Part shown: positions 17,941 to 55,352 of the stretch, piece after piece
Position numbering within the stretch: position 1 is the first letter of the stretch
Layout of the letters: each line of letters opens with the position of its first letter
NCBI GenBank assembly: GCA_002633275.1
Contig: NWBO01000101.1
Location: forward strand, 68,340-131,652
Reading direction: 5' to 3'
Source of the DNA: Bacteroidales bacterium Phil12
GTDB taxonomy: Bacteria > Bacteroidota > Bacteroidia > Bacteroidales > P3
DNA length: 63,313 nucleotides
Notes under the pieces: generated by a model
What the model was told of the DNA's origin: nothing
The model's input: only the letters and a program-made list of their open reading frames with translations
Database searches by the model: none
Translations under genes and position numbers: made by a program

Positions 17941-17980
17941 ACGACAGTCCGACAAAAATTTTTGTCGGACTGTCGTCTTT
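17941..17980. terminator. Bidirectional terminator between hydG and a convergent gene
   Basis: A perfect 18-bp inverted repeat (ACGACAGTCCGACAAAAA and complement) followed by CTTTT lies between the convergent hydG and carboxypeptidase-regulatory-like genes. It is flush with the 21-bp array. Confidence 0.85.
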
Positions 17981-44736: not shown

Positions 44737-45183
44737 TTATTTGTCTTTATTACGATTTAACAAATTACTTAGATCTTTTTTTGTAAAATTCACTTCAAAA
44801 TAATGGTTATTAGAACTAACATTGTATATTAACTTTGTATTATTTGCAATAAGTGTAGTTAATAAAGTTACAAGAGATTTTTCTTCCTGCATTGATTCAT
44901 ATATAATATTTTTTAATTCTTGCTTATTCTCCAAATAATAGGAATAGACAGAGGGTCTAAGAACCCAAAACATAGTAAATTCATTTTTTTCAACATTGTG
45001 AATAAAATCTGCCCCTATTATAATAATTTCGTCACTAACTTTTTGAAAAGGTATGTTTTCCGCTATTTCTGTTAATATTTTATCATAGTTCTTTCCCTCT
45101 GTTAAGTTAACTGCCGAAACTCCGCACGAACCCATATTCATCATCATAACAACAATTATGCTTATTAATATTTTTCTTTTCAT
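44737..45183 (-). CDS. Small exported lipoprotein, paralogue of its upstream neighbour
   Basis: 148 residues, started at MKRKILISIIVVMMMNMGSC because it gives a clean lipoprotein signal; earlier in-frame ATGs exist. The mature part aligns with the neighbouring 157-residue protein (GADFIHNVEKNEFTMFWV against GVEFVHNDEKNRLYYFYV; LIANNTKLIYN against LIENNSELVYS). No family is recognised. The last gene of the phosphosignalling island, 19 nt after its paralogue. AT-rich, like the rest of the island. Confidence 0.7.
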   Translation of the reverse strand: MKRKILISIIVVMMMNMGSCGVSAVNLTEGKNYDKILTEIAENIPFQKVSDEIIIIGADFIHNVEKNEFTMFWVLRPSVYSYYLENKQELKNIIYESMQEEKSLVTLLTTLIANNTKLIYNVSSNNHYFEVNFTKKDLSNLLNRNKDK

Positions 45184-45202
45184 AAATTTTCTCCTCATTA
45201 TT

Positions 45203-45676
45203 TTATTTTCCGACAATAATCTCTTTAAGTTCTTTTACACTGAAAACGATTGTAAAACAATTTCTTTTTTCACAATACGAATAAACCAATTCACTATTAT
45301 TCTCAATAAGATTAGATAATATAATTGCCCAACCAATTGACTGATCCTTATTTGGTGTATTCAAGAGATGTTTAATATTATTTAATGTTTCGTTTTTTAG
45401 TATCTGTTTTGATTCTGAATTATTTACACGTTGATACATTGTAGGATCTACGACATAGAAGTAGTACAACCTATTCTTTTCATCATTATGTACAAATTCT
45501 ACACCTACCGATATAGTGTAATCATCAACCATATTACCAAACACCTCATCACTTATTTCATGTGCCATTGCTTCCAAAAACTCATCTTCTTCTTTATCAT
45601 CCATCTCATTAGCGAAAATAGATTGAACGAATAAAAAAGAGAATATAAGCATTAATAAAAATTTTATTTTTTTCAT
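45203..45676 (-). CDS. Small exported protein, paralogue of the next gene
   Basis: 157 residues with a Sec signal (FLLMLIFSFLFVQSIFANE), started at MKKIKF; an earlier ATG at 45709 would overlap a hairpin. The mature protein starts with an acidic stretch (DDKEEDEFLEAM), then the shared domain (SVGVEFVHNDEKN...LIENNSELVYSYCEKRNCFTIVFSVKELKEI). The end of the large kinase upstream has a comparable strand-helix-strand ending (IISIDYSSSFIRMIIKFV...IYVLITFVDKNGKYIASV), so all three may carry one domain; that last link is tentative. Confidence 0.7.
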   Translation of the reverse strand: MKKIKFLLMLIFSFLFVQSIFANEMDDKEEDEFLEAMAHEISDEVFGNMVDDYTISVGVEFVHNDEKNRLYYFYVVDPTMYQRVNNSESKQILKNETLNNIKHLLNTPNKDQSIGWAIILSNLIENNSELVYSYCEKRNCFTIVFSVKELKEIIVGK

Positions 45677-45694
45677 TTTTCTACAAATTTTATT

Positions 45695-45728
45695 CATAAA
45701 GGTTGGCACTATTACTCCAACCTTTATG
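45695..45728 (-). terminator. Hairpin between the YD-repeat kinase and the small exported protein
   Basis: A perfect 12-bp stem (CATAAAGGTTGG and complement, 10-nt loop) lies between the two genes, with no long T-run. It may be a partial terminator or an mRNA processing or stability element that sets the ratio of kinase to small exported protein. Confidence 0.6.
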
Positions 45729-45740
45729 AATGATTAACAA

Positions 45741-48700
45741 CTACTGCTGCACAGATGCAATATATTTTCCATTCTTATCCACAAATGTTATCAAAACATA
45801 AATAGATGACGGGATACCGATCTCCTTTACAAAATTTTTAATAGTTTCCTTTCCAGACTCTCCCTTTAAGTCTCTAATTTGTTCTTGCGAAAAATCATTT
45901 TCAGACATTCTAACAAACTTTATGATCATACGAATAAAAGATGAAGAATAATCAATACTTATAATATTTGCACCACTCCAATAATACGGAACTGGTAGAT
46001 TACGTTTTAAATCATTTAAATAATCTCGCCAATTCTTATAAGAGCTATGAGTATTATGATTTTGATTTGTAATAACTTTATAATTACCATTATTATCATA
46101 TTTCAATTTTAGTAAAAGCTTACCTACAACAGAATAATACGATTCCATATCCGTATCACCATTATTTTTATATGTTTTTACTATCTTATGATATCCTTGT
46201 GATTTACACGTAGCAGGTTTGCCTTGTGTATCATAAAATGCCCATTCTATAGGTCTATTATAATTGTCATATTTTACCACAGATTTATGATAACCATCTG
46301 TTAATACTGGTTTATCTTTTACATCATAATACAACTCTTCAACAAGATAATTTCTTTCATTATATTTGAAACGCTCTATGGACCAAGTCTGACCTTTATA
46401 ACATATAAATTGACCATTAACATCTTGAGCGGCTCTATAAATCATATTACCTCTATTGTCATATTGACAAATAGCCATAGGTGGCATTTCTTTAGGGTCT
46501 GTCGGTTTGCCATCAACATCAAAATACATTTCTTTAGTAACAAAACCATATTGATTATATTCTCGGCGGAACACACTAAAACCTTCGGATTTCTTTATAG
46601 GTTTCTCATCCTCTCCGTAAAATGAAGTTTCAGTACATAGGCCCCGTTCATCGTATTTATATTTGACTATTGCAAAATTACCTACACAAAGAATTAATTT
46701 ACCATCTGTGCCATAATAACGCTCTTCCGTTATGTCATTTTTAGAATTATATACATATGTGCATTTATGAATATTATTTGAATTTAATGCAGCTGCTCCG
46801 GAGGCTTTATGTAGAGAACTTTCTATAACATTTCCATATTTATCATATTTAAATCTTTGTATCAATCTATTATGAGCAAGTTCTCCATTAGGCCCAATTG
46901 GCTTATTTTCCAATATATTTCCACTTTTATCACAAGTAAAATCTTCTCCTGATATACCTCTAACAAGAACTAATTTATTGTTTAAATCAAAATACCTATA
47001 CCTCACTAAATTATTACTTTGATCATATTCATATACGACTTTTGCATATCCAAGTGGTGGCAATATAGGTTGTCCTTCTATTCCAAAGAAATTTCGCTCA
47101 ATATGATTACCCCTATCATCATAAACATCATTCCATCCTGCAATACCTTCATCACTGAGTCTCAAATTTTTCTTTGCAGCACCCATAAATGACGTTTTTA
47201 TATTATTACCCTTTGCATCATATTCACGCACAACGCTAATAATATTATGTATATCTGCCATAGGATGTAAATCTTTTCCTAAATTGGTAAAAGTAATTAT
47301 TTGATTCTTATCATTAAAGGTTTGCTTAAATCCAGCATTACCTTCTTTAGAGACTGTAGGTTGTTTATCTTTCCCATAGAAGACGGTTTTAATATTATTA
47401 CCGATTGAATCATATTCAAATTTAATACCCGCATAGCCTTCAAGGTTATTTACCAAATTATTTTTATCGTCATAAAACCATGCTTCAAGAATATTACCAT
47501 TCTCATCATTTTTCATTTCTTGAACAGAATTTCCTGATGTAGATACGACTTTTTTATCACGAGTATCGTAATAAGACGTTTTAACAACATATCCATTCTT
47601 ATCGTATTCTTCTTTAGTTATAGCTACACCTGTGTTTTGAACAAACATAGGTTTCTTGTCAAGTCCTAGAAATTCGGTAGTAACTTTAAAACCTTTATCA
47701 TTATAAATATTATGTACTCCTGCAATTCCATTATACTTCGGAATCATCGGATTACCTTTACCATCTTGGTGTAATTGATAGATAACATTGGAATATTTAT
47801 CGTACTCCAAGCAATAGATAGATGTTCCTTCAGAAATATCAAAGGCTGGCTTCCTATCAATAGTCAAATAAACAGACTTAACCCAATTATCATGTTTATC
47901 ATAAGAAAACCGCTTGATACTTAATCCCCATTTAGTAGAAGTCGGTTGTTCATCAATGTTTAAATATTGAAGTTCCGTCACTCTACCTTTGTCGTCTCTC
48001 TTATATTGCACACCATAAATACCATTCTCATCACTTGCGGGTGAACTATCTAAACTCTTATATTTTACTGTTTTTACATATCCGTTTTCATCATATACAA
48101 TCCAATAACGAGATATTCTACTTTTTTGCGAACCTTCATCTTCCAAAACTCTATTATACTCAAATGTATTAGTAGCAATAAATCTTTCTGTACCATGTTC
48201 ATCGTCATATTGAAAACACATCGTGTTTAATTTATCATTGTATGCTTTAACATACAACACCTTACCATTTCTATCCTTAACTTTTATTCTGGAAACATTA
48301 CCATTTTCTGCATAATAAAACTGTTGGTCTATAGGTCTTTCTGCTCTTTCACTTTCTCCGTCATCAATAATTTTATCCAAACTATTAACATGAGAAACAC
48401 GTTGAAGTTTGCGTTTCCTATATTCAAACTTATAAGAACGCTGCATATGAGAATGTTTACTCTTACTTACTTTACCTACTCCCTGAGGTATGCCCCATTG
48501 TTCTACATAATCTTTATAGTAGTATATTTTTGTACGATTATAGTCCCAAATATATAAACTTACCGCAACTATAAGCAACATTGTTATTGCTGCAACAATT
48601 TTTGTCCTTAAAGAAAACATAGGACGCAATGCTTTTATATAAGATTCTTTGAACTCCGTACAATTCTTATATCTTGATTGTTTATCTTTACTTGTTGCTT

Positions 48701-49475
48701 TATCTACAATAGCTTGTATTTTAGCTGATATATATGGATAATATTCTTTCATTCTTTTCAATGGATATGCCACTACAGATTCTTCTATCTGTTGTTCCGT
48801 CATTGTAGAGGTATCATAAGGAGGTTTACCTGTAAGTATATGATACAACAATACGCCCAAAGAATAGACATCAGAACGTTCATCCAAATCTTCCATCTTT
48901 ATCTGTTCTGGAGACATATAAGATGGTGTTCCCATAAATAATTCTTCTTTGGCAACATTATCCTTTGAAAATATTTTTGCAATACCAAAATCCAAAATTT
49001 TTGGTACTATAATTTTTTTACCATCTTTATCTTCTGTTTCTGTAATAATGATATTTGATGGTTTTATATCTCTATGAAGAACGCCTTGTTTATGAGCATA
49101 CGCGAAAGCATCCAATATAGGTGCAAAAATTTCTTCAGAATCCTTTTCAACAACAAGTCCATGTTTTTTTCTAATATAATCTTCCAACGTAAGACCTTCA
49201 GCATATTCCATAATAAGATAGACATTATCGTCTTTATCAATATGAAATGTTTTGAAACCAACAATATTTGTATGCGAAAGTTTTTGCAATATCTCTGCTT
49301 CTTCTTTCAATCTTTGCTTGGTAAAATCATTGACCATAGATGAATTTATCATCTTGATAGCAACTTTATCTGCTTGCATATTTTTGTTTTGGGCCAGATA
49401 AACTGTACCCATACCACCCTTTCCTATTTCGGATGTTATTAAGTAATTTAATACTTCTTTTCCTATAATACTCAT
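45741..49475 (-). CDS. Transmembrane Ser/Thr kinase with a long exported YD-type repeat domain
   Basis: 1244 residues, started at MSIIGKEVLNYLI. Residues 10-285 are a complete Hanks-type kinase: glycine loop IGKGGMG (17-23), Lys 41, catalytic HRD (134-136) in HRDIKPSN, DFG (162-164), SPE and DVYSLGVLLY. One membrane helix (292-310) follows. The rest, over 850 residues, is about 18-20 repeats of roughly 48 residues of the form YD-xx-GN-xx-xxxYYDxxGKPxxxxxGxxxxxxxYD, the YD/Rhs-like beta pattern. A periplasmic sensor or binding surface linked to a cytoplasmic kinase is inferred. The final 90 residues form a separate domain. Strongly AT-rich. Confidence 0.88.
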   Translation of the reverse strand: MSIIGKEVLNYLITSEIGKGGMGTVYLAQNKNMQADKVAIKMINSSMVNDFTKQRLKEEAEILQKLSHTNIVGFKTFHIDKDDNVYLIMEYAEGLTLEDYIRKKHGLVVEKDSEEIFAPILDAFAYAHKQGVLHRDIKPSNIIITETEDKDGKKIIVPKILDFGIAKIFSKDNVAKEELFMGTPSYMSPEQIKMEDLDERSDVYSLGVLLYHILTGKPPYDTSTMTEQQIEESVVAYPLKRMKEYYPYISAKIQAIVDKATSKDKQSRYKNCTEFKESYIKALRPMFSLRTKIVAAITMLLIVAVSLYIWDYNRTKIYYYKDYVEQWGIPQGVGKVSKSKHSHMQRSYKFEYRKRKLQRVSHVNSLDKIIDDGESERAERPIDQQFYYAENGNVSRIKVKDRNGKVLYVKAYNDKLNTMCFQYDDEHGTERFIATNTFEYNRVLEDEGSQKSRISRYWIVYDENGYVKTVKYKSLDSSPASDENGIYGVQYKRDDKGRVTELQYLNIDEQPTSTKWGLSIKRFSYDKHDNWVKSVYLTIDRKPAFDISEGTSIYCLEYDKYSNVIYQLHQDGKGNPMIPKYNGIAGVHNIYNDKGFKVTTEFLGLDKKPMFVQNTGVAITKEEYDKNGYVVKTSYYDTRDKKVVSTSGNSVQEMKNDENGNILEAWFYDDKNNLVNNLEGYAGIKFEYDSIGNNIKTVFYGKDKQPTVSKEGNAGFKQTFNDKNQIITFTNLGKDLHPMADIHNIISVVREYDAKGNNIKTSFMGAAKKNLRLSDEGIAGWNDVYDDRGNHIERNFFGIEGQPILPPLGYAKVVYEYDQSNNLVRYRYFDLNNKLVLVRGISGEDFTCDKSGNILENKPIGPNGELAHNRLIQRFKYDKYGNVIESSLHKASGAAALNSNNIHKCTYVYNSKNDITEERYYGTDGKLILCVGNFAIVKYKYDERGLCTETSFYGEDEKPIKKSEGFSVFRREYNQYGFVTKEMYFDVDGKPTDPKEMPPMAICQYDNRGNMIYRAAQDVNGQFICYKGQTWSIERFKYNERNYLVEELYYDVKDKPVLTDGYHKSVVKYDNYNRPIEWAFYDTQGKPATCKSQGYHKIVKTYKNNGDTDMESYYSVVGKLLLKLKYDNNGNYKVITNQNHNTHSSYKNWRDYLNDLKRNLPVPYYWSGANIISIDYSSSFIRMIIKFVRMSENDFSQEQIRDLKGESGKETIKNFVKEIGIPSSIYVLITFVDKNGKYIASVQQ

Positions 49476-49701
49476 CACTATGTTATTTTTTAAAATTTTC
49501 AATAATTAATATATAATATTTAACACTACAGCTGCTAATTCCACTTATCCTACTATTTTCGCTGCAATATTTTTTATCATTCCATCCAAAGCATAAAACT
49601 ACACCTTCTATGTATAAGTACAATACACCTAATCCACAATCCAAATTTTCATTATCAGCACGATAATCCACTTGGTAATTTTAAGATAAGCCTTTTATTA
49701 T

Positions 49702-49910
49702 AACGTGAGTTCGACAAAAATTAATCAAAAGATTATCAGGAGATTAAATATTTGTAACACTCCAATATGAATGATGTTTATGAATTTATATGATTGATAT
49801 CTCCTATATTTTGTTCAAATGCTAAAACCTCTTGAAGAATTATTCTAATATTTTTTGAAAAGATGTATAATTCACTTATTTCCAATAATTAAATTCGTCG
49901 GACTCACGTT
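49702..49910. mobile_element. MITE-like element, 209 bp, with terminal inverted repeats and ATTAT target duplication
   Basis: AACGTGAGTTCGAC at the left end (49702-49715) is matched inverted at the right end (GTCGGACTCACGTT, 49897-49910), one mismatch, with similarity continuing inward. ATTAT directly flanks both ends (49697-49701 and 49911-49915). It has no ORF of use, so it would move with a transposase from elsewhere. It lies in the 740-nt gap between the two kinase genes; the rest of that gap (49476-49696, 49916-50214) shows no gene I can support. Confidence 0.6.
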
Positions 49911-50214
49911 ATTATATGTATTATTTATATACTGTTATTATGTCCTGAATTTATAGAACGTAATTTCAACTATAATTGCCCTCACGATAAAGAAAATTTG
50001 CCTACTAACAATATTATGCCATAAGTTTCTTCTATTACTGATTTCCTATTATTTTAGCATTAAGATGTGAAACATTAGTAATAATACCTATATAATACTA
50101 CCTGCCGTATAAAATGTATTTTATCTCAACTGCGTACCGAAAACATAGTTATTATTTGTAACTATGTCATTATATTACTTCTACTTATTGTTATTATTTT
50201 CATTTCTCTATTTT

Positions 50215-51405
50215 TTAATTACTAAATACAATAAATGCTATTAAACAAATGGTCGCCACAATAATAAATAAAACTTTCCAAATAACAATAGGATGAGGAT
50301 CTGGAGGAACAATATTAAGTTTAGATATAACTTCTTTCCAATCTATGGAATATTTCCCCACAAGTAGTACATCAGGCAGAGTGTTCGTTTCTCCTGGCAT
50401 ATAAGGGAATGATGCAGTTTCTTTACAAATTTTCCTTCCATTGAATCCAGTACCATTAGTTGATACATCTTCTATTACAATTTCTTTTTTCATGCTATCA
50501 TATCTTACACGAAGATGCTCGCGTGAAATACAATTATCCATATCCTTCATAACAATATCATTATTGTCTGATGAACCAATTGTAATATAATCTTTTGGGA
50601 ACGAATCTCCCCCCTGCAATGCAAGTTTGAACTCTTCTGCTGTTTGATAACGTTTTCTCATATCTTTATCAACAGCCTTATATATTATATCTTCCGTTGC
50701 TTTACTTATATTGTTATTAGATAGTTTCACAGATGGAAAATTACTATGTAAAATAGACATTCTCGTATCAAAATCATTCGATTTTTTTGCTATTGCATCG
50801 TGTCCAGTCAGCAAATAAAAAAGCACACACCCCAATGAATAAATATCTGTTCTTGTATCAATATTCAATCCACCAACTTGTTCTGGGGACATATATCCGT
50901 CGGTACCTATTATAGTACCGACAGTATGCCCTGTTGAACCTATTTTAGCATCTTTTGCAATACCAAAATCTATGATACAGATTGAACCATTGGGACGAAT
51001 CATTATATTGCTTGGCTTTATATCCCTATGAATACATCCTTGATTATGTATATATGTAAAAGCATCCAATATTTTACACATCAATTCTTTTGCTTCATCT
51101 TCTGTGTAAGGACCACATCCATGTATTCTTTGTGAAATAGTTTCTCCTTCAATAAACTCCATAGGAATACAAAGATTACCTTCTGTATCTTTATAAGGTT
51201 CTCCCAAAATATGAACAACATTATTGCTTCTCATTTTTTTAAGTGCTTCAACTTCACTTATAAAAAGTTCTCTATATACAGGATAACAAGCAACACTATT
51301 ATTCATCTTCTTCAAAGCAACTCTACGCCCCGTATTAGAATCAATGGCAGAGAATACCGATCCCATACCACCACTGCCAATCTTTCTTTCAATAGTATAA
51401 GCCAT
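50215..51405 (-). CDS. Membrane Ser/Thr kinase with C-terminal FHA domain
   Basis: 396 residues. Kinase residues: GSGGMG (10-15), Lys 32, HRD 126-128 (HRDIKPSN), DFG 146-148, SPE and DIYSLGCVLFY. An FHA domain spans about 275-355 with the phosphothreonine-binding pattern IGSS...NCISREHLRV...STNGTGFNG. A single C-terminal helix (374-394) tail-anchors the protein, so both kinase and FHA face the cytoplasm. The FHA may read a phosphothreonine made by this or the neighbouring kinase. It follows the PP2C gene by 22 nt. Confidence 0.92.
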   Translation of the reverse strand: MAYTIERKIGSGGMGSVFSAIDSNTGRRVALKKMNNSVACYPVYRELFISEVEALKKMRSNNVVHILGEPYKDTEGNLCIPMEFIEGETISQRIHGCGPYTEDEAKELMCKILDAFTYIHNQGCIHRDIKPSNIMIRPNGSICIIDFGIAKDAKIGSTGHTVGTIIGTDGYMSPEQVGGLNIDTRTDIYSLGCVLFYLLTGHDAIAKKSNDFDTRMSILHSNFPSVKLSNNNISKATEDIIYKAVDKDMRKRYQTAEEFKLALQGGDSFPKDYITIGSSDNNDIVMKDMDNCISREHLRVRYDSMKKEIVIEDVSTNGTGFNGRKICKETASFPYMPGETNTLPDVLLVGKYSIDWKEVISKLNIVPPDPHPIVIWKVLFIIVATICLIAFIVFSN

Positions 51406-51427
51406 ATGTATATAATTTTAGTTTACT

Positions 51428-52891
51428 TTACTTCTGTTTTTTTTGTTGCTTCGGAATCGCTTTAGCCGCACCTACTCCACCATTTGTTTTATTTATTTTC
51501 CCACGAGTAGAGTCTGTTTTTGAAGAGTTAGTAGAATCGTTAGTAGAAGTATTTCCATCATGACTGCTTTGATTATTTTTGGCGGTTGAGCTGGATTTTT
51601 TTTCAGAATTTTTATTATCATTAGTAGTAACTCCCACTCGATTATTGCTTTCAGAATCTCTCTGGATCGTTACTTTTATTGAACATTTATAGATATTATC
51701 TTTAGTTATTATATTAAAATAAAATTTCTCATTCTTATAAGGTTCGTTCGTCCAACGAAAATCGCCGTTAGCAAATGTAGCATACTCCGGCTGATAACCT
51801 TCTATTGTGTCAATTTTACCCTTACTACTCCAAATTAATTTTTCACCGCTGTTAATCTTAATATCACTATTCGTATTAGTTATCCTCAAAAATTGAGCAC
51901 CTGGTTCCCAAGTAACATTTTGAGGTAATTTCGATTCTAAAACATTTGGTTTATGTTCTTCTGGTGATACCACAACACTTTGAAATCCTTTTAGTTGACC
52001 ATCTTCATTGTCAGCAACCTTCACCTGGTTAGTTTTTCCTCCGCCAATAAATATAAATAATGCAGCAACTACACAAAGAATGACTAATCCTATTATGATA
52101 TACATTTTCTTTAGATCTAATTTCTTCTGTATAGGTGTAACTGGAAATTCAACTATCTGTACAGTTATATTGTCAGTACCACCGTTTTTGTTTGCTTCAT
52201 CAATAAGCATTTGGGCTCTTTGAGTGATATTTATATCGTATTTGCTAACAATTCGACCTATTCTCTCATCATCTACCATTCCGGTTAAACCATCGGAACA
52301 AAGTAAGAAACAGTCTCCTGCCTTTGTTGAAATAGGATTTTGTGTAAGAACCGTTGCAGGTTTCATACCCTGCATTCCTAAAGCATTGGTAATTTCATTT
52401 CTTCTTGGATGAGTTCTCGCTTCTTGAACAGAAATACGATGCTCATCAACTAACATCTGAACATAAGACTGATCTTTTGTAAGTTGACTTGCATGATGGT
52501 TTTGTATAATATAAACCCTACTGTCTCCCACAGAACCTATATACACTCTACCATTTCTGACAATCAACAAAACACAAGTCGTGCCCATGCCCTGCAATTT
52601 GACATCACGTTGTCCCTCTGCTATAATAGCCAGATTTGCTGCATCTATCGCCCTTATAATGGCTTCATTTACATCTTCTATATATTCATTGGAAAGAAAA
52701 TCTAAAATTGTGTTTACCGCAATAGATGATGCTATGGCTCCACCTACTGCACCGCCCATTCCATCGCAAACTGTTACTACACGACCATTTATTGTGTCTC
52801 TATGACCACAACAATCTTCATTAGCTTGTCGTTTTCTCCCTATATCCGAAAGTTCCGCTATCTGGCAATAATCAAATTTTTCTATTTCCAT
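51428..52891 (-). CDS. Membrane PP2C (PPM) Ser/Thr phosphatase
   Basis: 487 residues. Residues 8-250 are a PP2C phosphatase with the metal-binding aspartates in NED (24-26), VCDGMGG (D43), CSDGLTG (D200) and GGTDNITV (D240). A membrane helix at 263-283 is followed by about 200 exported residues, first a beta-rich Ig-like region (QFLRITNTNSDIKINSGEKLIWSS...) and then a Ser/Thr/Asn/Lys-rich tail. The likely job is to remove the phosphates placed by the two kinases. It is 12 nt from the zinc-ribbon-FHA gene and clearly in the same operon. Confidence 0.92.
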   Translation of the reverse strand: MEIEKFDYCQIAELSDIGRKRQANEDCCGHRDTINGRVVTVCDGMGGAVGGAIASSIAVNTILDFLSNEYIEDVNEAIIRAIDAANLAIIAEGQRDVKLQGMGTTCVLLIVRNGRVYIGSVGDSRVYIIQNHHASQLTKDQSYVQMLVDEHRISVQEARTHPRRNEITNALGMQGMKPATVLTQNPISTKAGDCFLLCSDGLTGMVDDERIGRIVSKYDINITQRAQMLIDEANKNGGTDNITVQIVEFPVTPIQKKLDLKKMYIIIGLVILCVVAALFIFIGGGKTNQVKVADNEDGQLKGFQSVVVSPEEHKPNVLESKLPQNVTWEPGAQFLRITNTNSDIKINSGEKLIWSSKGKIDTIEGYQPEYATFANGDFRWTNEPYKNEKFYFNIITKDNIYKCSIKVTIQRDSESNNRVGVTTNDNKNSEKKSSSTAKNNQSSHDGNTSTNDSTNSSKTDSTRGKINKTNGGVGAAKAIPKQQKKQK

Positions 52892-52903
52892 AGCTTAAAT
52901 AAA

Positions 52904-53476
52904 TTAAAAATTAGAAGAAATCTCTATAAACTGCAATTTTGTCTTTCCTATCACGATAACATCCTTATCATGTAATGGATATGGTTGATGTTTATAACAT
53001 TTTTGACCTTGTATATATGCAAAATGATTATTCGAAAGATTATAAGCTATGTACTCATGCTCGTCTGCAATATACTGTATTTCCAAATGTTCTCCTGATA
53101 GTTCGTCATCTTCAGGAATTGAAATATCACACGATGAAGAACGTCCTATTTTATTGCTTCCTGCATAGATATCATAAGACTTTCCCCTTTGATTATTAGT
53201 ATACGTTATCAACATTCCTGCAAGAAGTTTACCTTGATTATCTCCGCCAATAATATTTCCATTGGCATCACGGATAATTGTTTTCCTTCCTGCCGCAGGC
53301 TCACTTTGATTCCATGGATCAGTAGGCCCTGTTGAAGAATAATTACCGTCATTCATTGGTCGTGTTTTCTCTTCTGTTGACACTTGCGTTTTATTGACCG
53401 TAGGACAAAAAGGACAATTATCTCCATAGATATCGCCATCATATTGATGACCATTTGCACATTTTCTTGTTGCCAT
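52904..53476 (-). CDS. Zinc-ribbon plus FHA domain adaptor
   Basis: 190 residues, cytoplasmic, no membrane segment. A short N-terminal zinc-ribbon-like motif (C6-ANGH10-QYDGDIYGDN-C21-PF-C24) is followed by a disordered linker with TRP, TGPTDP and RKT sites that could be kinase targets, then an FHA domain (about 95-190; KIGRSSSCDISIPEDDELSGEHLEIQY). Such proteins are phosphothreonine adaptors. The ribbon resembles those of Ter-associated phosphosignalling proteins, an inference from pattern only. Confidence 0.88.
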   Translation of the reverse strand: MATRKCANGHQYDGDIYGDNCPFCPTVNKTQVSTEEKTRPMNDGNYSSTGPTDPWNQSEPAAGRKTIIRDANGNIIGGDNQGKLLAGMLITYTNNQRGKSYDIYAGSNKIGRSSSCDISIPEDDELSGEHLEIQYIADEHEYIAYNLSNNHFAYIQGQKCYKHQPYPLHDKDVIVIGKTKLQFIEISSNF

Positions 53477-53507
53477 AATATTTGCTTATTTATTAAATTA
53501 TTATTAA

Positions 53508-55019
53508 TTAGTTTTGAGTCTTTACAAAATTTGCCACTGGTACAGGCTTAATTGCTTGATTGTGTTGTGCAGGTATGGTTGTTATATTCCCATCAGAAGT
53601 TAGTGTACGATATTCATACCCCGAAACAATAACACCTGCGAATTTTCCTTTTGTATCAAACACTGGCGAACCACTTGCACCATGTGTTATGTTAATATTG
53701 TGTCCGTACAAGAACTCACTGACATTTTGATTAACCGTCCCACTTTCGTTTGTAGCCTGCAAACCTTGTTGAGTTTGTCCCCAAGACAGACCGCGAGGAA
53801 AACCTATTGTATAAAGTTTTTTGCCAATTGCAATATCATTATCTGTCGACACATTACTAATATCCACAATATTTTCCACAGCAGAAGGAGTTTGCTTTGT
53901 GTTTATCTGAATTACAGCAACATCCAAATCATTATTATCACTTGCTTTAAGAAGTGTACAAGGAATTAAATCCTTTTCACTCTGTAAATATGCATCATTC
54001 ATTGCTATTGACAATGAACTTACATATCTTACTCTCATCGCATTAACAATATTTCTTGCTTTATCACCATAAGTTTTAAGAATTGCGTTAGAAAGGCTTA
54101 ACCTAATAAAATCAGCTATTTCTTGTTCGTGCCCCATCAAGGTTACAACATGCTTATTCGTTACAATCTTTCCATCCGTTGATACAAAAAATCCTGTTCC
54201 TGTCATTCCTTGCACTCCAGTACATATTTCACCTTTTTCGTTAATATTATATTGATCTTCAACATTTTTAATAACATCACTTAAATTATATTCTCCAATA
54301 GTAACTCTAAATGTATATTGATTATGTATCAATACTACACTTTTTTTATATTTGGCGTAAATTTCTTCTGCTGACAATTCAATCGGAGTTTCTGGTTGTG
54401 GATGACTAATCTTATTGTATAAAAAATATCCACCACCTAATATTATAAAGATTCCTATAAAAACAGCAACGTATTTAGCTATAATATTAACATTTTTAAC
54501 TGGAAGCAATTTTTCCCAATCTACATTTACAATTCTAGCTAAACTTACCACATCGCCCTTATGTAAAACAGCATGAGACACTCTTTTCCCATTAACATAT
54601 GTACCATTAGTTGAATTATTATCTACAATTCCTCTAATACCATCTTGCGTTCGATACAACGTTGCATGTTTTGACGATACCTCCTTTTGTGAATATATTT
54701 TACCTGATTCTGCTCCACGTCCTAATAATACTTTCTTGACTGTATTAGATGGAAAAGTAGGAGTAAAATCAATAATACCATTTATTATAGAACACCAGTC
54801 AATCTGCTCATTAGCCAATTTAACAATATCGCCCTTATATAGCACTGTCTCCGTTGATATTCTTTTACCATTAACATAAGTACCATTCATTGAATTTAAA
54901 TCTCGAACAGTAACTTTTGAATCATTATATTGTATCAATTCAGCATGATTAGACGATATAATTGATTTACTTATTATAAAATCATTATCTTTTGAACGTC
55001 CTATTCTAACTCTCTTCAT
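53508..55019 (-). CDS. FHA-FHA-transmembrane-trypsin-like protease
   Basis: 503 residues. Two FHA domains (1-80: IGRSKDNDFIISKSIISSNHAEL...NSMNGTYVNGKR; 95-165: LGRGAESGKIYS..VSSKHATLY...NSTNGTYVNGKR) face the cytoplasm. A membrane helix spans 182-203. The exported part is a chymotrypsin-fold serine protease with His290 (GTGFFVSTDGKIVTNKHVV), Asp366 (DNNDLDVAVI) and Ser449 (THGASGSPVFD). No PDZ domain follows. The layout could pass phosphothreonine recognition inside the cell to proteolysis outside. It is the first gene of the operon, 130 nt after the terminator of a small G-tract unit. Confidence 0.9.
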   Translation of the reverse strand: MKRVRIGRSKDNDFIISKSIISSNHAELIQYNDSKVTVRDLNSMNGTYVNGKRISTETVLYKGDIVKLANEQIDWCSIINGIIDFTPTFPSNTVKKVLLGRGAESGKIYSQKEVSSKHATLYRTQDGIRGIVDNNSTNGTYVNGKRVSHAVLHKGDVVSLARIVNVDWEKLLPVKNVNIIAKYVAVFIGIFIILGGGYFLYNKISHPQPETPIELSAEEIYAKYKKSVVLIHNQYTFRVTIGEYNLSDVIKNVEDQYNINEKGEICTGVQGMTGTGFFVSTDGKIVTNKHVVTLMGHEQEIADFIRLSLSNAILKTYGDKARNIVNAMRVRYVSSLSIAMNDAYLQSEKDLIPCTLLKASDNNDLDVAVIQINTKQTPSAVENIVDISNVSTDNDIAIGKKLYTIGFPRGLSWGQTQQGLQATNESGTVNQNVSEFLYGHNINITHGASGSPVFDTKGKFAGVIVSGYEYRTLTSDGNITTIPAQHNQAIKPVPVANFVKTQN

Positions 55020-55110
55020 ATTTTTTATTTAATTTAGACTGACTAATTGTTCATATAAGCAAACTTTACTTTCTAATAGCCCTATCCTACTTACTTTCAT
55101 ATAGTTTCTT

Positions 55111-55153
55111 AAAATAAAAAAATATACAGACAAACTCATTACGAGTCTATCTG
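55111..55153 (-). terminator. Intrinsic terminator of G-tract mini-unit B
   Basis: On the minus strand CAGATAGACTC pairs fully with GAGTTTGTCTG and is followed by TATATTTTTTTATTTT. The stem is the covarying relative of the one at 31494-31531. It lies about 90 nt upstream of the FHA-protease gene, where it could act as an attenuator. Confidence 0.8.
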
Positions 55154-55211
55154 TATACCTTAATTGTATATAATGTTATTATTATATTCTTTACATTTTC
55201 AAATGTTCTAC

Positions 55212-55298
55212 TTAAAATCCCCCCCCCATCACCACCATAAGGTCTATGAATAAAGGAGTTACGTTAAAAATATTAATATTAGCGTTTATTCTTACCAT
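55212..55298 (-). CDS. Small ORF B (28 codons in the present register) with a G9 tract
   Basis: The ATG lies 24 nt after the -7 box, as in unit A, and the first 17 residues align with that unit (MVRINANINIFNVTPLF). A run of nine G (55219-55227) then gives Gly-Gly-Gly-Phe-stop. One more G would keep the frame open for 50 codons with the stop inside the 5' arm of the terminator hairpin. I suspect a translated leader; a functional peptide is possible. The plus strand here holds a hydrophobic 22-codon frame that I regard as its shadow. Confidence 0.4.
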   Translation of the reverse strand: MVRINANINIFNVTPLFIDLMVVMGGGF

Positions 55299-55321
55299 TA
55301 TTTCGCTTTGTTAATGGATTG

Positions 55322-55352
55322 CAAAAATATAAATTATTTTTCAATTGACAAT
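55322..55352 (-). promoter_or_regulatory. Promoter of G-tract mini-unit B and probably of the phosphosignalling operon
   Basis: On the minus strand ATTG (-33), 19 nt, then TATTTTTG (55329-55322). One mismatch to TTTG. Reading through the terminator at 55111-55153 would bring this transcript into the FHA-protease gene. Confidence 0.6.

What the first reader, a model, noticed from the sequence alone, without database searches (positions are those of the whole stretch)
44737..55352. A membrane-centred phosphothreonine signalling island with a protease output
Seen: seven leftward genes between smpB and folA encode two Hanks kinases, one PP2C phosphatase, four FHA domains in three proteins, a transmembrane trypsin-like protease and two small exported paralogues. 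Known: kinase, PP2C and FHA sets drive T6SS regulation and Ter-type (TerY-P) stress modules, but no vWA, T6SS or ter gene is present. Inferred: kinase and phosphatase set a phosphothreonine mark in the cytoplasm, FHA domains read it, and the linked protease and YD-repeat surface act outside. Every catalytic site seems intact. I know of no described system with this exact set.
Basis: partly seen in the sequence, partly recalled or inferred. Interest (0 to 1): 0.85.

Follow-up and report, generated by a model that had tools for sequence, protein, structure and literature searches.

The report
Phosphothreonine-to-membrane-protease signalling module in Bacteroidota
A sporadic gene island encodes two kinases, a phosphatase, phospho-binding domains and a membrane-anchored protease; related sets recur in other bacteria of the same phylum, sometimes beside a type VI secretion machine, and point to a signalling system whose target is unknown.

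Summary
In detail: seven leftward genes lie between folA and smpB with the stated domains and intact enzyme motifs.

It is not a one-off. I examined 19 genes that fuse FHA domain(s), a membrane helix and a trypsin-like protease. A kinase gene lies near all 19. PP2C and further FHA genes lie near 17; in the other two (one genus) I saw none. The window, three MAGs of its family and one Prevotellaceae MAG share the order protease, zinc-ribbon-FHA, PP2C, kinase-FHA, YD-kinase. Another class of the phylum keeps the first three in order. In two genomes a cousin module runs into a Bacteroidota T6SS operon; the window's genome has no TssC match. The closest relative lacks the island at the same site.

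The two small exported paralogues are not core: relatives occur without the module.

Best reading: a kinase with an exchangeable exported domain senses an envelope or surface state, FHA domains read threonine phosphate, and a DegS/HtrA-like periplasmic protease is the output; PP2C, where present, resets it. Anatomy and linkage are shown. Signal, phosphorylation, protease control and target are inferred. Nine paper searches found no description of it.

The parts
53508..55019 (-). FHA-FHA-TM-trypsin-like protease, 503 aa; FHA domains at the cytoplasmic N-terminus, protease predicted periplasmic
   Evidence: Pfam FHA 2 stretches, Trypsin_2 6.8e-16; TM 176-202; triad H290, D366, S449; Foldseek best matches Deg1, DegS, HtrA1 for a medium-confidence model (pLDDT 72.5)
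52904..53476 (-). zinc-ribbon-like plus FHA protein, 190 aa, soluble
   Evidence: FHA 4.8e-12; C-x3-H...C-x2-C kept in 10 of 10 aligned; no TM
51428..52891 (-). Stp1-type PP2C phosphatase with TM and a C-terminal extracytoplasmic tail, 487 aa
50215..51405 (-). Ser/Thr kinase - FHA - C-terminal TM, 396 aa
   Evidence: Pkinase 7e-54, FHA 5.4e-10; TM 369-396
45741..49475 (-). Ser/Thr kinase - TM - Rhs/YD-like beta-hairpin repeat ectodomain with a small C-terminal domain, 1244 aa from the likely ATG
   Evidence: Pkinase 2.6e-56; TM 286-312; model and Foldseek
49696..49916 (.). MITE-like repeat in the gap before the YD-kinase gene; not part of the module, may affect its transcription
   Evidence: 23-nt inverted arms; 23 matches in the genome, itself included
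45203..45676 (-). small exported protein, paralogue 1; accessory, not core
   Evidence: absent from the other loci
44737..45198 (-). small exported protein, paralogue 2; accessory, not core (start ATG 45198 or 45183)

Best explanation
A transmembrane phospho-signalling module with a protease output. Shown: gene linkage, domain content, predicted membrane topology, intact enzyme motifs. Inferred: the exported ectodomain of a TM kinase (Rhs/YD-like repeats here; other repeat or adhesion-like domains elsewhere) senses an envelope or surface state; the kinase phosphorylates threonines on itself, on the kinase-FHA protein or on another target; FHA domains bind that mark and gather the FHA-FHA-TM-trypsin protein; clustering or a conformational change switches on its periplasmic, DegS/HtrA-like protease, which cuts an envelope substrate; the membrane-bound PP2C turns the signal off. 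The tightest unit may be TM kinase plus FHA-TM-protease.
For: 19 of 19 FHA-TM-trypsin genes have a kinase gene near, 17 of 19 also PP2C and further FHA genes; by one fixed criterion all kinase, PP2C and FHA genes within 10 kb are co-directional in 16 of 17 loci, the 17th (L043) failing only because its divergent protease was not recognised at that threshold, while 10 control loci hold none. In 16 carrier genomes 17 of 26 PP2C genes lie in the module and 9 genomes have no other. Triad kept in 17 of 17. In G187 the kinase and protease genes overlap by 4 nt. The domain attached to the kinase or beside it varies: YD-like repeats, Sel1, Lcl_C, separate WG repeats, SH3_3 (SH3_3, one Lcl_C and the Sel1 of L010 are below cut-off). 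Protease fold nearest Deg/HtrA in sequence and model.
Against: No experiment. G187 and G355 show no PP2C and no further FHA gene in what I saw, so reset by PP2C is not general (G355 seen over 3.6 kb only). The window's kinase-FHA lacks the canonical Arg and its zinc-ribbon FHA lacks Asn-Gly. L008 and L043 have one FHA, not two, on the protease. The MITE gap could uncouple the YD-kinase gene. The protease model is of medium confidence with a poor 408-447 stretch around the active-site serine loop. Topology rests on hydropathy, and no TM reached the threshold in the YD-kinase of L009 or one kinase of L023.
Confidence: 0.5

Rival explanations
1. A T6SS-type threonine-phosphorylation pathway (PpkA/PppA/Fha-like) adapted to Bacteroidota, with the window's copy an orphan that now serves another envelope machine.
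For: In SW299/G292 and G307 the cousin module runs directly into ClpV, TssB, TssC and (G292) TssD genes; TssC found in both genomes (G307's match is cut off by the contig end). Two more kinases lie at the far side of the G292 T6SS cluster.
Against: No TssC in the window's genome, L006-L009, G174, G187 or the three chromosomal class C genomes tested; class D was not tested. On the tree the T6SS-linked pair is one clade apart from the window's. G276 and G055 have TssC without an FHA-trypsin hit.
Confidence: 0.15
2. An anti-phage or anti-competitor defence device like KKP: PP2C restrains toxic kinases, and infection releases kinase and protease activity.
For: Sporadic: 1 of 14 genomes of the genus, present/absent at one site, one copy of a cousin on a plasmid record; two kinases plus PP2C plus FHA as in KKP (PMC11341870, passages).
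Against: Large exported ectodomains and an extracytoplasmic protease suit envelope sensing better; no cold-shock domain, gene order differs; no hit in phage records or viral contigs; PADLOC hits are to generic kinase domains or weak protease models.
Confidence: 0.2
3. A loose cluster of ordinary kinase, phosphatase and FHA genes without joint function.
For: Such genes often cluster; the window's copy shows gaps and altered FHA sites.
Against: Order and strand kept across families and a second class; architecture follows the protease tree (B, C, D one change each; A two changes; all four together 3 changes, as low in 0 of 200 shuffles).
Confidence: 0.1

Closest known systems
T6SS threonine-phosphorylation pathway (PpkA, PppA, Fha)
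   Same: kinase, PP2C and FHA reader at the membrane; cousin modules adjoin T6SS genes
   Different: the window has no T6SS and adds a membrane protease and zinc-ribbon-FHA protein; I recall no protease in PpkA/PppA/Fha
KKP (kinase-kinase-phosphatase) prophage module, PMC11341870 (passages)
   Same: two kinases, one with FHA, plus PP2C
   Different: KKP is defined there by a cold-shock domain on PfkA and conserved triplet order, mostly in prophages; here no such domain, membrane ectodomains and a protease
TerY-P triad (recalled)
   Same: kinase and PP2C linked
   Different: no vWA domain in any of the seven proteins
PASTA kinase / Stp pair (PrkC, PknB, Stp1)
   Same: TM kinase with exported sensor repeats, Stp1-type PP2C
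   Different: ectodomain is not PASTA (kinase hits NF033483 at 239.5 and 222.9 against a cut-off of 450); FHA-protease added
DegS/HtrA envelope proteases
   Same: trypsin fold, TM-anchored, predicted periplasmic
   Different: no PDZ domain reported by Pfam; cytoplasmic FHA domains instead

Membership tests
T6SS threonine-phosphorylation pathway | T6SS genes in the genome | tested here: not met
   no TssC (PF17541) match in the window's genome, 97.45% complete
T6SS threonine-phosphorylation pathway | kinase, PP2C and FHA genes linked | tested here: met
KKP | cold-shock domain on one kinase | tested here: not met
   no such Pfam hit at E 0.1 in either kinase
KKP | FHA on the other kinase, PP2C in the cluster | tested here: met
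KKP | growth arrest by kinases, countered by phosphatase | not testable with these tools
   needs expression assay
TerY-P triad | vWA protein with kinase and PP2C | tested here: not met
   no vWA hit in the seven proteins
PASTA kinase (PrkC/PknB) | PASTA ectodomain | tested here: not met
   no PASTA hit; NF033483 far below cut-off
Stp1/IreP PP2C | NCBIfam equivalog cut-off | tested here: met
   230.3 against 230 bits: a bare pass
Rhs/YD-repeat proteins | sequence match to RHS/YD repeat models | tested here: not met
   RHS_repeat E 1.7
Rhs/YD-repeat proteins | beta-hairpin repeat fold of Rhs shells | tested here: inconclusive
   Foldseek E down to 4.9e-30 but low TM-score; no closed shell shown
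HtrA/Deg proteases | trypsin fold with catalytic triad | tested here: met
HtrA/Deg proteases | PDZ domain | tested here: not met
   no PDZ hit at E 0.1

The most novel reading that the evidence does not exclude
Bacteroidota hold an undescribed class of inside-out signalling device: a constant core (TM kinase, FHA reader fused through the membrane to a periplasmic protease, usually a zinc-ribbon-FHA or similar FHA protein and PP2C) with exchangeable exported sensor domains, deployed on its own, on a plasmid, or to drive a T6SS; cytoplasmic phosphothreonine would control proteolysis outside the cytoplasm.
Probability: 0.3. Interest if true: 0.75.

Novelty: new variant of a known kind. Interest (0 to 1): 0.56.

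Why it matters
If true, a cytoplasmic phosphothreonine mark would be wired through one polypeptide to proteolysis in the envelope, a link I do not know from any described bacterial kinase system (recall, plus the nine searches). The T6SS-linked cousins suggest that some Bacteroidota T6SS have a phosphorylation control; the one survey of gut Bacteroidales T6SS that I searched inside has no occurrence of kinase, FHA or phosphatase in its main text (PMC4714493). Both claims can be tested by deletion and phosphoproteomics.

Tried and rejected
1) Small exported proteins as copies of the YD-kinase's C-terminal domain: hhalign probability 19% with two rows fell to 0.6% with five. Rejected.

2) A decayed FHA-TM or YbjN-like gene in the 739-bp gap: no tblastn match better than E 0.66. 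Not found; the gap holds a MITE-like repeat instead.

3) Phage or viral origin: no match in phage records or viral contigs (79 pattern matches, none confirmed). One plasmid record matched at 25.8% identity.

G187 (L026) and G355 (L019) carry FHA-FHA-TM-trypsin next to a kinase with no PP2C or further FHA gene seen (17.4-kb contig and 3.6 kb).

Rows dropped before counting 19: G206 and G761 (FHA-ABC transporters), G578 (FHA only), G783, G895 and G046 (trypsin without FHA), G022 (kinase, PP2C, FHA, no trypsin). L021 is the same locus as L010 and L064-L066 the same contigs as L006-L008; each counted once.

Limits: in the order and phylum searches only three candidates per genome were scored, and the divergent G174 gene was missed there, so those frequencies are lower bounds. 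Class D genomes were not tested for TssC.
Full report
OBSERVATION. Seven leftward ORFs fill 44737-55019 between folA and smpB. The island is AT-rich (29-36% G+C per 2-kb bin between 44 and 56 kb; bins elsewhere in the window 30-43%), so composition alone does not mark it as foreign. Spacing suggests two transcription blocks: protease, zinc-ribbon-FHA, PP2C and kinase-FHA are 12-31 nt apart; then a 739-bp gap; then the YD-kinase and the two small genes.

PRESENCE AND ABSENCE. In G005, the closest genome of the genus by folA (92% identity), the same purD-thyA-folA and smpB-TlpA genes flank 1.7 kb with two unrelated short ORFs: no island. None of the other 13 genomes of the genus has an FHA-trypsin hit. 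Counting E <= 1e-30 hits, then those that truly join FHA and protease: family 6 of 190, 5 true; order 9 of 393, 8 true; phylum 10 of 395, 7 true (sorted). These samples overlap, and the searches scored few candidates per genome, so they are lower bounds.

RELATED LOCI. Class A (window, L006, L007, L008, L009): protease, zinc-ribbon-FHA, PP2C, kinase-FHA, YD-kinase, all in this order and on one strand. L006-L008 add an FHA-TM gene, and L006, L007 and L009 a small exported gene I call YbjN-like (weak: E 0.27 for L006 and 4.9e-4 for the L043 homologue, both below cut-off). L006-L008 are the contigs of G469, G551 and G452, same family as the window. L043 (G174) is a divergent version whose YD-kinase is interrupted by a stop. 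Class B (L010/G292 and L022/G307): FHA, kinase, PP2C, FHA, protease, a 415-aa protein, kinase, WG repeats, then ClpV, TssB, TssC and, in G292, TssD. Class C (L023, L024, L025 and L087 on a Phocaeicola massiliensis plasmid record): similar, with WG repeats and no T6SS genes seen; L023 has an outer-membrane beta-barrel gene inside. Class D (five genomes of one genus, same phylum but not same class): kinase(s), protease, zinc-ribbon-FHA, PP2C. A two-gene form, kinase overlapping FHA-FHA-TM-trypsin by 4 nt, stands in G187 and abuts the same way in G355, without PP2C in the DNA seen. It runs against the claim of a fixed four-part set, and for the kinase-protease pair as the heart of it.

IS IT MORE THAN CHANCE? 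By one fixed criterion, 16 of 17 loci show kinase, PP2C and other FHA genes within 10 kb, each such gene on the protease's strand; the 17th, L043, was missed because its protease fell under the threshold, though one search shows the same neighbours. Ten control loci (six from same-genus genomes, four with YD-like repeats) have none of the three. Across 16 carrier genomes, 26 PP2C genes were found, 17 in the module; 9 genomes have none elsewhere. Three same-genus genomes without the module have 0, 0 and 2. In a tree of 17 proteases, classes B, C and D are each one side of a branch (support 100/100, 99/99, 100/100); class A needs two changes because L009 is not placed with the rest, and L043 is a long branch of unsure place.

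WHAT VARIES. The exported part linked to the kinase differs: Rhs/YD-like hairpin repeats in class A, a separate WG-repeat protein in B and C, Sel1 repeats or an Lcl_C domain in D, a weak SH3_3 hit in G187. Hydropathy puts a TM between kinase and that part in most kinases tested, though not in L009's YD-kinase nor in one kinase of L023. A constant core with changing sensors is the simplest reading, and it is an inference.

SMALL PARALOGUES. Relatives of the two small exported proteins occur in G007, G008 and G013 of the same genus, which lack the module, with no kinase, PP2C or FHA gene within the 16 kb fetched. They are absent from the other loci. I count them as accessory or as passengers.

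T6SS LINK. The window's genome has no TssC match. Of genomes with FHA-trypsin tested, TssC is found in G292 and G307 (the latter a fragment at a contig end) and not in G000, the four genomes of L006-L009, G174, G382, G271, G146 or G187. G276 and G055 have TssC but no FHA-trypsin hit. So T6SS is one use of the module family at most.

LITERATURE. Nine answered paper searches gave no paper describing an FHA-TM-trypsin gene with kinase and PP2C in Bacteroidota. I saw listings and abstract starts for these, and searched passages of PMC7159879, PMC12088040, PMC11341870, PMC4714493 and PMC8195603. The library holds open-licence PMC papers only, so this does not show that none exists. Kaur et al. (PMC7159879) describe GTPase-centred systems with a kinase linked to PP2C and a vWA gene; no vWA is present here.

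VERDICT. A real, conserved, sporadic module; not a member of T6SS-TPP, KKP, TerY-P or PASTA-kinase systems by the tests in Membership tests, though it may work like the first two. Mechanism as under Best explanation, confidence 0.5.

Noticed in passing
window 49696-49916: MITE-like repeat: 23-nt inverted arms 87% complementary, 175 nt apart; 23 matches in the genome including itself, ten others at least 186 bp long at 74-86% identity.
   Followed up: partly
window 17941-17976: Palindromic pair of a 16-nt motif with two mismatches to the MITE arm.
   Followed up: no
L010 / L100 (G292, Bacteroidales bacterium SW299): A Bacteroidota T6SS cluster with kinases on both sides, a WG-repeat protein and a DUF4280 protein with a C-terminal toxin-domain hit.
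   Followed up: partly
L026:9674-12729 (G187) and L019 (G355): Two-gene form: TM kinase overlapping FHA-FHA-TM-trypsin, no PP2C seen.
   Followed up: partly
L087 (OY726067.1, Phocaeicola massiliensis, 140-kb plasmid record): Class C module on a record typed as a non-mobilizable plasmid.
   Followed up: partly
L069 (G798): Kinase, FHA and PP2C genes repeated in tandem around one protease: five kinases and two PP2C within 10 kb.
   Followed up: no
L002 (G046): TM-trypsin protein without FHA beside a gene that begins with a P-loop-like motif (my reading, no family search).
   Followed up: no
L043 (G174): YD-kinase gene interrupted by a TAG stop.
   Followed up: no
L009:10661-11119: smpB also lies near the Prevotellaceae copy, but on the opposite strand relative to the module and several genes away.
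   Followed up: no
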